Positions 39,098 to 41,361 of a stretch of DNA of 58,234 nucleotides are shown here, piece by piece. The notes beneath the pieces were generated by a model. It worked only from the letters and a program-made list of their open reading frames with translations, made no database searches and was not told where the DNA came from. Origin of the DNA: Bacteroidales bacterium (GTDB lineage Bacteria; Bacteroidota; Bacteroidia; Bacteroidales; P3); contig JAFRRK010000014.1 in assembly GCA_017428115.1 (NCBI GenBank), positions 1 to 58,234 of the forward strand, written 5' to 3'. Position 1 is the stretch's first letter, and each line of letters begins with the position of its first letter. Position numbers and translations under genes: made by a program.

Positions 39098-39258
39098 TAA
39101 TTCAATACCTCATATTCAGCACTTTTCTCAATTATTGGATATTTACCTTCTATATATAGCTTTACCAATTCAGCATGAGATATGGGTTTAGAATAGTCGG
39201 CGATATTGCAATTTGTGGCGTATAGGTCATTTTGCAGGATGATTTTTTGTACTTGTTG
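39097..39258 (-). pseudogene. 5'-truncated gene end abutting an IS
   Basis: A 53-codon minus-strand stretch without a start codon reads ...NDLYATNCNIADYSKP, ISHAELVKLYIEGKYPII and ends EKSAEYEVLN. The first residues (QKIILQND) are encoded by the IS terminal repeat itself, so the IS insertion or a later deletion removed the 5' part. It was probably the first gene of the module. No family is recognised. Confidence 0.5.
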
Positions 39259-39299
39259 TCAATAGGTCTATTTGCTGGATGGACATTTCAAATTAGTTT

Positions 39300-40368
39300 A
39301 GTTCTTTTGCCCCGCTGTTTGAAGTTTTGCGGACCTCGGCTGGGCAGCATCTCCGTGTGGTTTTGTTCTGCTGTGTATGACGTCTTGTCTTATGTGGAGC
39401 GGCTGCCCGATGTGGTGGCTGTTCCTGTGTTATGTCATGTTTGTTTTCTCTCTATGACATGTTTTTCCCACTGATGTAACGCTTGCGGTTATCCTTTCAC
39501 TTCCCTCTTTGGTTGTTGTGGTTCTTTTTCTGGTCTGTTTTTGTCCCCTCTTTTTTGTTGTTGGTGTTGCGCTTTCCCTCGCTTACGGGCTGCTGATTGG
39601 TAATAAGGTATGGCAGGTTGTTGTAGACCCTGTGCTTGGACGTGCGCTGCCGTTTGTGGCTGTTCTGATTCTTCCCGGTCTTCAATGTTGTGCGCCTGTT
39701 TAACTACTCGTTCCTCTTGGTCTTCCATCCCCTGTTTTCTTTCTCTATGTCCGCTCCCCGTTTGGTCGTTATGCCTCAGACCATGTCTTTCTGTTCTCTG
39801 CCCGCAATCTGTCTAGGGTGCTGGGTATGGTTTCGTCTTAATATCTGTTTCTTGTGGTTCGGACTCTTCTGGATATTGTTTTTCCCGAACTCGTCGAACT
39901 GGCTTTTCTTCCCGTCTTTCTCTTTTCCCTTTATGTCATAGTTGCGCCCCTCTATGCTGCGTACGGCTTACACTTTGTCCTGTTACTTTTCGTGTGCAAT
40001 GATTTCCTGTTATAATGGCTTGACGGATTCCTCGTCCTGGGCAAGCTTCTCTCCCCAGTTGTGTCCCCAGTAGGTGGCATCTATATGGACGACCCCCCCC
40101 CTCAAGATAGTTGCGGCTGCTCCCTCTTCATCGCCACCCCTCGCAGCCGTCGCTTGATTGTCGTGTCGCTTTCCCCATAGGTGGCTGCCATTTCCGACTC
40201 TGTCTGTTTCCCATTCTGGTATCTTCTCCATATGCCGTCTTGCGAGTACTTTTCATTGTTTCGGAACTGGTTGCCGCTTTCTCTGCTGACTTATGTCTGG
40301 ATTCCTTTCCGTTTTCCGTTTTTTACCGTGTGTGTTTCCCCTCACGCTGGTCTTTTCTTCTTGTACTT
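39300..40368 (-). pseudogene. Hypermutated transposase pseudogene
   Basis: The minus strand still reads as a transposase: THTVKNGKRKGIQT, EMAATYGESDTTIKRRLRG, VVHIDATYWGHNWG, SIEGRNYDIKG, YNNLPYLITNQQ, EGTKTDQKKNHNN and NRKRYISG, interrupted by many stops. These match remembered blocks of Zn-ribbon IS256-like transposases. Differences are mostly Phe to Lys/Asn, Leu to Gln/His/stop, Met to Lys, Tyr to Asn, Trp to Arg and Cys to Ser, each one or two T-to-A changes. AGA-CCA-GCG-TGA (40353-40342) restores to Cys-Pro-Ala-Cys and AGC-AGA-GAA-AGC to Cys-Arg-Glu-Cys if A is read as T. The probable original start is AAG (from ATG) at 40368. Confidence 0.75.
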
Positions 40369-40390
40369 TTGCTACCTTTTTTGTGTGTCT
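39300..40390. other. Adenine-depleted tract, about 1.1 kb
   Basis: By hand count, 39301-40380 contains 112 A in 1080 bases (10.4%), while T is very high (32 of 60 in 39481-39540). The flanks return to ordinary values within one line of sequence: 14 A in 39241-39300 and 11-12 A per 60 after 40381. The depletion explains the open plus-strand frames in this tract, which are not genes. Confidence 0.85.
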
Positions 40391-40400
40391 TGAACACCTG

Positions 40401-40408
40401 CAAAGGTA
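40401..40408 (-). promoter_or_regulatory. -7 box of the degraded IS transposase
   Basis: The minus strand reads TACCTTTG then CA, a TAnnTTTG box. It lies just outside the A-depleted tract, and the transcript would begin at about 40393-40398. Confidence 0.55.
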
Positions 40409-40701
40409 ATGTTTCTCTTCTTTTCGGATGATTTTATCCTGCTTTTTGTCCTATTGACGCTTTTTATTTGTTAAAATGTCCAACAAGCTCCTTGACTGCC
40501 GAATTCTCTACTGAATTCAAGCGTTCCGAAAGATTTTATCCTGCAAAATAATCTATAGACCTAATTATCATCGGGGTTGGTAAGGGGTGTTTTCTTCCTC
40601 TACTGGTTGGGGGATTGGGTGGTGTGTAATAGAAGGAAGAACTAGGAATGGCCCCCTAAGATGTTTAAACTCAGGGGTGGGGGATTGTTGTGAGCTGCTT
40701 T

Positions 40702-41361
40702 TTAGCTTACAATCAGGGGGAGGAGGTCGGCGAAGTCGTCGATAAGACAGTCGGCACCAGCGGCGAGGAGGTCGGCGGGGATGCCGTTGCCGTAGGTGAC
40801 GCCGCAGGTGCGGGTGCCGGCACCTGCGCCCATGAGGATGTCGACGGGCATGTCGCCTACGACCAAGGCTTGGCCGGGGGTGAGGTGTAGCTTGTGGAGG
40901 ATGTGGAGGACGGGCATGGGCGAGGGCTTGGGCTGGCTGACTTCTTGTGCGCCGACCACCAGTTGGAAGTAGGGGGCTATGTCCATGTCGTCCAAGAAGG
41001 CAGATAGCGAGGTGGAGGTGCGCGAGGAGGCTATGGCCATTTGTATGCCACGAAGGCGTAGGAGCTCGAGGGTTTCGCGGACGTGGGGGAAGAGCTGTGG
41101 GACGAGTTGTCGGCGGTTGGCTTCAAAGAATTGTCGGTAAGTGGAGGTGCAGAGGTCTGCATCGGCTTTAGTGGCTTGGGGAATGAGGCGCAGGAAGGCA
41201 TCACGAAGGGGTATGCCGATGGTGGCAGCACAGGCATCGTCGTCTGCCACAGGATAGCCCAGCTGGCGCATCACCTGCTGCAGGGTCATGACAATGTTGC
41301 GGCGGGTGTCGGCCAGGGTGCCGTCGAAGTCGAGGATGAGGAGGCTAGTGGGTGAAGGCAT
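40702..41361 (-). CDS. HAD-family hydrolase (phosphoglycolate phosphatase-like)
   Basis: The start at 41361 (MPSPTSLLILDFDGTLADT) gives 219 residues; longer frames run antisense-like through the next gene. The four HAD motifs are visible: DFDGTLADT (I), ASSRTS (II), the Lys in QPKPSP (III) and VVGDMPVDILMGAGAG (IV), with a helical cap inserted after motif I. The substrate is not predictable; phosphoglycolate or pyrophosphate-type substrates are common for this subfamily. It overlaps the DUF4159 gene by 17 bp and is last in a minus-strand run. Confidence 0.85.
   Translation of the reverse strand: MPSPTSLLILDFDGTLADTRRNIVMTLQQVMRQLGYPVADDDACAATIGIPLRDAFLRLIPQATKADADLCTSTYRQFFEANRRQLVPQLFPHVRETLELLRLRGIQMAIASSRTSTSLSAFLDDMDIAPYFQLVVGAQEVSQPKPSPMPVLHILHKLHLTPGQALVVGDMPVDILMGAGAGTRTCGVTYGNGIPADLLAAGADCLIDDFADLLPLIVS

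What the first reader, a model, noticed from the sequence alone, without database searches (positions are those of the whole stretch)
39300..40390. One-directional A-to-T hypermutation of an insertion sequence
On the given strand A falls to about 10% (112 of 1080 by hand count) while T is very high, with sharp edges. The coding (minus) strand is a recognisable Zn-ribbon IS256-like transposase whose damage is almost purely T-to-A: Phe to Lys/Asn, Leu to Gln/His/stop, Met to Lys, Tyr to Asn, Trp to Arg, Cys to Ser. Reading A back to T restores both zinc knuckles (AGA-CCA-GCG-TGA to C-P-A-C; AGC-AGA-GAA-AGC to C-R-E-C). Ordinary decay is dominated by C/G-to-T/A transitions, so a strand-specific transversion spectrum suggests an active process. 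Diversity-generating reverse transcriptases target template adenines, but here the outcome is mainly T. No comparable bacterial transposon-directed mutation is known to me.
Basis: partly seen in the sequence, partly recalled or inferred. Interest (0 to 1): 0.9.

Follow-up and report, generated by a model that had tools for sequence, protein, structure and literature searches.

The report
Bacterial transposon with one-way adenine-to-thymine hypermutation
One copy of a jumping gene in a rumen bacterium has had about half of the adenines on one of its strands turned into thymine while the DNA on either side was left alone, a pattern that fits no bacterial mutation system we compared it with.

Summary
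Window 39217-40561 is a copy of an IS256-type (Zn-variant) insertion sequence in a draft Bacteroidales genome. Against close relatives, the + strand of its interior shows A>T at 134 of 271 adenines but T>A at 4 of 380 thymines; transitions are few, and the outer 52 and 44 bp carry no A>T. It is strand-specific, recent, declines along the strand and has only a weak sequence context. No second case appeared in 97 relative loci, 120 genus genomes (best candidates scored) or 2.18 of 2.78 Mb of this genome. The resident IS family is recently mobile: five insertions have exact 8-bp duplications; this copy has none. Known DGRs are not the source: five DGR-like loci of the genus give A>G:T:C 42:25:13 against 3:134:6 here, and none was found in this genome. 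Spontaneous depurination, ordinary decay and codon selection do not fit. Best reading: one strand was copied once with template A read as T about half the time, by an adenine-unfaithful polymerase or after adenine-specific damage. The enzyme is unidentified. One case, no reads checked.

The parts
39217..40561 (-). Whole insertion sequence, 1345 bp, IS256 family Zn-binding variant (transposase on minus strand), ends GGCGTATAGG... and ...CTATAGACC
   Evidence: ends shared with 16 contig edges of the same genome; intact relative L019 hits NF048019 at 7.1e-137
39269..40517 (+). Hypermutated tract: about half of ancestral A on the + strand read T
39217..39268 (+). Spared left end, 10 of 10 A unchanged, no difference to the own-genome IS left ends up to 39268
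40518..40561 (+). Spared right end, no A>T at 13 A positions; a few other differences to relatives
39440..40368 (-). Former transposase reading frame (308 codons in L019): 93 missense, 14 synonymous, 10 stop, 191 unchanged codons
   Evidence: counts; coordinates
40093..40101 (+). Run of nine C with a 2-base insertion relative to L019; local slippage-like patch inside the tract
39098..39216 (-). Left flank: one minus-strand frame is open through all 39 codons up to the IS, likely the 3' part of a gene cut by the IS; the 500 bases up to the IS have A 23%
   Evidence: frame; composition; that it is a cut gene is inference
40562..41061 (+). Right flank: no target-site duplication with the left flank (CAATTTGT / TAATTATC); not hypermutated (A 19%, T 22%)

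Best explanation
SHOWN: one copy of an IS256-type element has a continuous 1.25-kb tract, wholly inside the element, in which about half of the adenines of one strand (the strand antisense to the transposase) became thymine; the partner strand's adenines were hardly touched; ordinary decay is slight, so it is recent. INFERRED: the interior of the element was copied once from the + strand (as single-stranded DNA or antisense RNA) by a polymerase that inserted A opposite template A about half the time and erred at C and G at a few per cent. The product replaced the interior of an IS copy, leaving the tips as they were. I favour a low-fidelity, adenine-unfaithful polymerase, probably a reverse transcriptase that works like a DGR enzyme but is not one of the known kind. 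The IS is taken to be an accidental or opportunistic template; transposase inactivation is a consequence, not necessarily a purpose.
For: Strand specificity over the whole tract: T>A 114 against A>T 4 on the coding strand, p 5e-29. 52% of T (coding) changed at unanimous columns, with secondary G>T 11 and G>A 5 of 193 and C>G 5 of 157, but T>C 0 and C>T 0: several kinds of error at once fit miscopying better than damage of one base. Being hit depends weakly on the neighbouring bases: cross-validated AUC 0.68 with three bases on either side against 0.60 with position alone, gain reached in 0.7% of 300 simulations; no single neighbour stands out (p 0.22) and there is no periodicity (p 0.31). No dependence on predicted pairing of either strand in four folds (p 0.48 or more). 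Slippage-like nine-C patch with a 2-base insertion. Rate gradient along the strand (rho -0.19, p 0.0016) and abrupt ends inside the element. Selective infidelity at template adenine of 30-50%, dependent on neighbours, is a documented polymerase property: bRT 30.65% in vivo and 51.2% in vitro, with A the preferred wrong base in vitro (PMC12875486, passages seen).
Against: No such enzyme identified: the only reverse transcriptase found in the 80%-complete genome is an AbiP2-type DRT protein, a group known (recalled) for untemplated synthesis. Known DGR enzymes give mixed A>N, and in vivo A is the least frequent wrong base of bRT (14.3%). Neither an RNA template nor a cDNA is shown. The missing target duplication is unexplained. 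The A>T exclusivity (134 of 143 changed A) is also what adenine loss plus A insertion would give.
Confidence: 0.42

Rival explanations
1. Adenine-specific damage of one exposed strand: an enzyme removed or modified adenines of the single-stranded + strand (or its RNA), and ordinary polymerases or reverse transcriptase inserted A opposite the unreadable sites (A-rule), giving A>T.
For: Nearly all changed A became T (134 of 143), as A insertion at abasic sites predicts; the same A/T transversion is used as the read-out of enzymatically depurinated RNA (PMC6024586, passage seen). Positive concordance of neighbouring adenines: adjacent AA pairs 42 of 66, expected 34.7, p 0.05; successive adenines 148 alike, expected 130, p 0.017, without correction for the gradient. 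The tips could have been shielded as a paired stem of the terminal repeats.
Against: C>A, C>T, G>C changes and the poly-C patch are not predicted. No dependence on predicted single-strandedness. Copying through some 134 lesions in 1.25 kb is hard to imagine in one pass. Spontaneous depurination would hit G as well, and + strand G>T is 4 of 280.
Confidence: 0.28
2. A diversity-generating retroelement of the known kind mutated the IS in trans.
For: Template adenine specificity, rate near 50% and some context dependence resemble DGR enzymes; DGR-like loci exist in the genus.
Against: Five genus repeat pairs give A>G 42, A>T 25, A>C 13 against 3, 134, 6 here (p 1e-22). Only 1 of 81 mismatches in those pairs lies off template A, against 25 of 99 changes here at unanimous columns. 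No DGR reverse transcriptase found and no base-specific repeat pair in the 2.18 Mb of this genome examined. Tract 1.25 kb against repeats of 77-125 columns.
Confidence: 0.06
3. Error-prone SOS polymerase (pol V/IV type) patch synthesis.
For: Pol V-type overexpression raises AT>TA and CG>AT transversions (tables in passages of PMC2680738); here + strand A>T and C>A are the two leading classes.
Against: Those spectra still hold many transitions, which are few here. A 50% rate per base in 1.25 kb is far beyond translesion polymerases (recalled).
Confidence: 0.07
4. Assembly, base-calling or data artefact.
For: Draft genome of 103 contigs, no reads available here; only one instance; no exact copy of a 29-base piece of the tract in viral contigs.
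Against: The tract is joined to non-IS flanks on both sides through spared ends of only 52 and 44 bp, whereas the other copies break contigs after about 77-140 bp of IS. Errors of sequencing are not expected to turn half the A's of one strand into T's over 1.25 kb and stop inside both ends (inference). Secondary changes are varied.
Confidence: 0.07
5. Ordinary decay or selection on base composition.
For: The copy is dead (10 stops).
Against: Among 97 relative loci compared pairwise the 56 most asymmetric alignments all include the window copy; transitions are few; the three codon positions are hit alike, 36 of 64, 41 of 81, 23 of 43.
Confidence: 0.02

Closest known systems
Diversity-generating retroelements (Bordetella BPP-1 type, bRT-Avd)
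   Same: Infidelity selective for template adenine, about 30-50% per adenine, other bases largely kept, influence of neighbouring bases
   Different: DGR outcome is mixed A>N in the genus and in the passages seen; here nearly pure A>T with some C and G errors, 1.25 kb, target is a transposon, no TR/VR or DGR RT found in this genome
Repeat-induced point mutation of fungi (recalled)
   Same: One-way hypermutation that kills a mobile repeat
   Different: RIP makes C>T transitions in repeated copies; here A>T on one strand of one copy, the ends of the others unmutated
APOBEC-type editing of retroelement cDNA (recalled)
   Same: Strand-specific single-type change over a kilobase from one single-stranded intermediate
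   Different: Cytosine deamination, transition; here adenine, transversion, no deamination product
Abasic-site A-rule mutagenesis
   Same: Adenine loss gives A>T (for RNA templates)
   Different: Does not explain C and G changes or the poly-C patch
SOS mutator, pol V
   Same: AT>TA and CG>AT transversions
   Different: Far lower rates (recalled), transitions present

Membership tests
IS256 family, Zn-binding variant (NF048019) | Transposase matches the family model over its cut-off | tested here: met
   intact relative L019: 455.7 bits, cut-off 150; window copy 85% identical in DNA over 1155 aligned bases. The broken window frame itself was not scanned
IS256 family, Zn-binding variant (NF048019) | 8-bp target duplication | tested here: not met
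   five own-genome insertions have exact 8-bp duplications; the window copy has CAATTTGT / TAATTATC. The family makes them, this copy lacks one
Diversity-generating retroelement | Changes concentrated at template adenine | tested here: met
   143 of 271 A changed against 25 of 327 C, 14 of 280 G, 12 of 380 T; but 25 of 99 changes at unanimous columns are off A
Diversity-generating retroelement | Mixed A>N outcome | tested here: not met
   134:6:3 T:C:G here, 25:13:42 in five genus loci
Diversity-generating retroelement | DGR reverse transcriptase in the genome | tested here: inconclusive
   single RT found is AbiP2-like; genome about 80% complete
Diversity-generating retroelement | Template/variable repeat pair | tested here: not met
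   no base-specific repeat pair among 5,888 repeat alignments over 2.18 of 2.78 Mb
Repeat-induced mutation of repeated DNA | Several copies of a repeat affected | tested here: inconclusive
   other own-genome copies unmutated at their ends; interiors are not assembled
SOS/pol V untargeted mutagenesis | AT>TA and CG>AT excess with transitions also present | tested here: inconclusive
   both transversions lead, transitions few
Adenine base loss with A insertion | Only adenines of one strand changed, to T | tested here: inconclusive
   A>T dominates but C and G also changed

The most novel reading that the evidence does not exclude
Rumen Bacteroidales possess a strand-specific adenine-to-thymine mutator, a polymerase or adenine-modifying system, that acts on single-stranded or RNA copies of mobile elements and kills them in one step: a bacterial counterpart in effect to fungal RIP or APOBEC restriction.
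Probability: 0.2. Interest if true: 0.95.

Novelty: categorically new. Interest (0 to 1): 0.74.

Why it matters
If reads confirm it, this is a near-pure, one-strand A>T hypermutation of a bacterial transposon at about 50% per adenine. None of the titles and abstract openings listed by four searches of an open-access library describes such a thing (listings only, the papers were not opened for this). It implies an enzyme with a specificity seen so far only loosely in DGR reverse transcriptases, or an adenine-directed damage system. Either would be a new way for bacteria to inactivate mobile DNA, or a new targeted mutator.

Tried and rejected
Ordinary decay: rejected by controls. Coding-driven skew: the other strongly skewed stretches that I looked at lie mostly in intact K/Q-rich frames, with one phage-like contig end; the longest stop-free frame over the window tract is 107 codons. 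DGR in trans: rejected by spectrum. Helical period and pairing: nothing significant. Sequence context: no single neighbour significant, but a weak joint effect of three bases on either side is (P 0.007). Other hypermutated copies: none among 97 loci and none in 120 genus genomes searched with the mutated copy (in the rows shown, 3 candidates per genome were scored). Viral contigs: 0 matches to two exact pieces and one partial relative. Phages none, plasmids 14 distant protein relatives and no DNA match. Avd-like four-helix genes (PF05635): two over the cut-off and two below it; only the one in C63 was looked at, and the frames listed in the first 4 kb of that contig show no reverse transcriptase. 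I did not search for specific glycosylase or toxin families.

Rows set aside: two columns (40093-40094, the insertion) have no ancestor letter; 9 A changed to C or G were left out of the gradient, context and pairing tests (262 of 271 A used; 260). In one search only unanimous columns were counted. In one search alignments under 150 columns were dropped, and only the 4,810 of 6,355 alignments with at least 8 T/A changes were tested; several of the 97 loci are duplicates of one another under two names. In one search, 5 of 18 reverse transcriptase loci had a mismatched repeat pair; which repeat is the template was assigned by the adenine bias itself. In one search repeat alignments under 60 columns or with fewer than 8 mismatches were dropped.

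Full report
WHAT IT IS. The window is contig C6 of a 2.78-Mb, 103-contig genome, about 80% complete. The contig of its nearest IS relative has the same length as one of the uncultured Bacteroidales assembly RUG360; that this is a rumen genome is inferred from that name and from the sources of other relatives. Positions 39217-40561 are a 1345-bp insertion sequence with the transposase on the minus strand. The transposase of the intact relative L019 is an IS256-family Zn-binding variant. Sixteen contig edges of the same genome end in this IS, nine left ends and seven right ends. The eight left ends compared are identical over 125 bp. Five left/right pairs share an exact 8-bp target duplication. 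So the family is multi-copy and recently mobile here, and its intact copies were presumably collapsed by the assembler. Of the 18 matches in the genome only the hypermutated copy is assembled through; sixteen are contig edges and one is a weak 33-base match.

THE MUTATION. Against L019 (1155 aligned bases, 981 identical) the coding strand of the window copy shows T>A 114, A>T 4, G>T 16, G>A 9, T>G 6, and 5 or fewer of each other type. Adding the left part from other copies, the + strand core has A>T 134 of 271 A, with A>C 6 and A>G 3. At 692 columns unanimous in four relatives, coding T>A is 72 of 138, while T>C is 0 of 138 and C>T 0 of 157; transitions of all kinds are 6 of 692. Controls treated alike, L019 and L141 against the other relatives, give mixed spectra. 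In 4,810 tested pairwise alignments among 97 fetched loci and the window copy, the 56 most asymmetric all include the window copy. The best other pair, L189 and L167, has p 1.6e-4, unremarkable for that many tests.

ANATOMY. The first A>T is at 39269 and the last at 40517. All 10 A's outside on the left and 13 on the right are unchanged; if the fitted rates are carried outward this has P about 2e-5 and 3e-3. The flanking 500 bases have A 23% and 19%, against 11.9% in the tract. The fraction hit is 58-71% in the left half and 31-49% in the right half, rho -0.19, p 0.0016. Neighbouring bases matter a little: three bases on either side lift the cross-validated AUC from 0.60 to 0.68, a gain reached in 0.7% of 300 simulations, though no single neighbour is significant (p 0.22) and there is no period (p 0.31). 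Adjacent AA pairs agree slightly more than expected, p 0.05. Predicted pairing of either strand, as DNA or RNA, does not matter, p 0.48 or more. Codon positions are hit alike. The former frame has 93 missense and 10 stop codons. Secondary changes are + strand C>A 17 of 327, C>T 8 of 327, G>C 8 of 280, and a nine-C patch at 40093-40101 with a 2-base insertion. Two of the nine A>C and A>G changes lie in that patch.

HOW UNUSUAL. An AT-skew scan of 141 stretches, 2,182,530 bases, puts the tract first at 600- and 1000-base windows. At 300 bases three other stretches exceed it. Those three lie in intact frames, and most of the other entries I looked at are in frames too; one is a phage-like contig end by my reading. 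I did not inspect every entry. In 5,888 repeat-pair alignments of those stretches, 32 are listed as dominated by one type of change; the top 12, and 14 in all, are the window copy against IS ends. Two weaker A/T pairs (L252 with L103 and L128, 6 changes of 12 and 13) were not followed up. Searching the 120 genus genomes held with the mutated copy found no second one; the best match was L019's place at 85%.

MECHANISM. Half of one strand's adenines to T with few transitions means one strand was read wrongly, recently, probably in one molecule. Guanines of the same strand were hardly turned to T (4 of 280), so spontaneous depurination, which takes both purines (recalled), does not fit. Two readings remain. 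(a) Miscopying: a polymerase put A opposite template A about half the time. It explains the errors at C and G, the slippage-like patch, the weak context and the indifference to folding. (b) Adenine-specific damage with A inserted opposite unreadable sites. It explains why the product is T and little else, and the weak agreement of neighbours. The read-out of enzymatically depurinated RNA by reverse transcriptase is the same A/T transversion (PMC6024586, passage seen). I favour (a), at 0.42 against 0.28. The step from copy to chromosome, replacement of an IS interior with tips kept, is inferred.

DGR TEST. Of 18 reverse transcriptase loci examined (17 of the genus and the AbiP2 locus of this genome), five (L290-L293, L295) carry repeat pairs whose mismatches sit on adenine of one repeat in 80 of 81 cases; I take them as DGRs. 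The outcome is A>G 42, A>T 25, A>C 13. Against 3:134:6 the difference has p 1e-22. The Bordetella enzyme misreads 30.65% of adenines in vivo, inserting C 59.3%, G 26.4%, A 14.3%, and 51.2% in vitro with A 43%, C 34.5%, G 22.5% (PMC12875486, passages seen). A large survey finds at least 75% of mismatches at template A in almost all DGRs (PMC8144416, passages seen). So rate and template base are DGR-like, the outcome is not, and no DGR was found in this genome. The only reverse transcriptase found is an AbiP2-type DRT protein in C77.

SITE. The window copy lacks a target duplication. In G006 the homologues of both flanks lie about 3 kb apart on one contig, and the left-flank match stops at window 39097. 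The insertion therefore came with a loss or rearrangement, or arrived by another route. This remains unexplained.

LIMITS. One copy, one draft genome, no reads. Own-genome intact copies are known only by their ends, so the exact parent is missing; apart from A>T the window copy differs from five own-genome right ends by 14-16 of 116-140 positions and from L019 by 11 of 131. About 0.6 Mb of the assembly was not scanned. The novelty claim rests on listings from one open-access library and on recall.

Noticed in passing
L037:892-2448 (contig C77 of the same genome): 518-aa reverse transcriptase of the AbiP2 type (PADLOC AbiP2, E 3e-183), the only RVT_1 match in the genome; function here unknown.
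   Followed up: partly
L290, L291, L292, L293, L295: DGR-like loci in the same genus: a reverse transcriptase beside repeat pairs of 77-125 columns with mismatches at adenine of one repeat (80 of 81).
   Followed up: partly
window 39209-39216 and 40562-40569; L304, L308: The hypermutated IS has no 8-bp duplication; in a relative the two flanks are about 3 kb apart, so sequence was lost or moved at this insertion.
   Followed up: partly
L002-L017: Sixteen contig edges end in the IS; five left/right pairs share exact 8-bp duplications, so these contigs can be ordered across the IS.
   Followed up: partly
L271:1-2265 (contig C33 end): T-poor, phage-like stretch with small frames and a 310-aa frame, followed by a CA-rich end; 'phage-like' is my guess, not searched.
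   Followed up: no
L252:9086-9283, L103:5509-5591, L128:19870-19991: Short repeats whose mismatches include 6 A/T exchanges of 12 or 13; too few to tell from chance.
   Followed up: no
L099:922-1254: Four-helix PF05635 (Avd/S23-like) gene beside a YebC-like gene (name recalled); no reverse transcriptase among the frames listed in the first 4 kb of the contig.
   Followed up: partly
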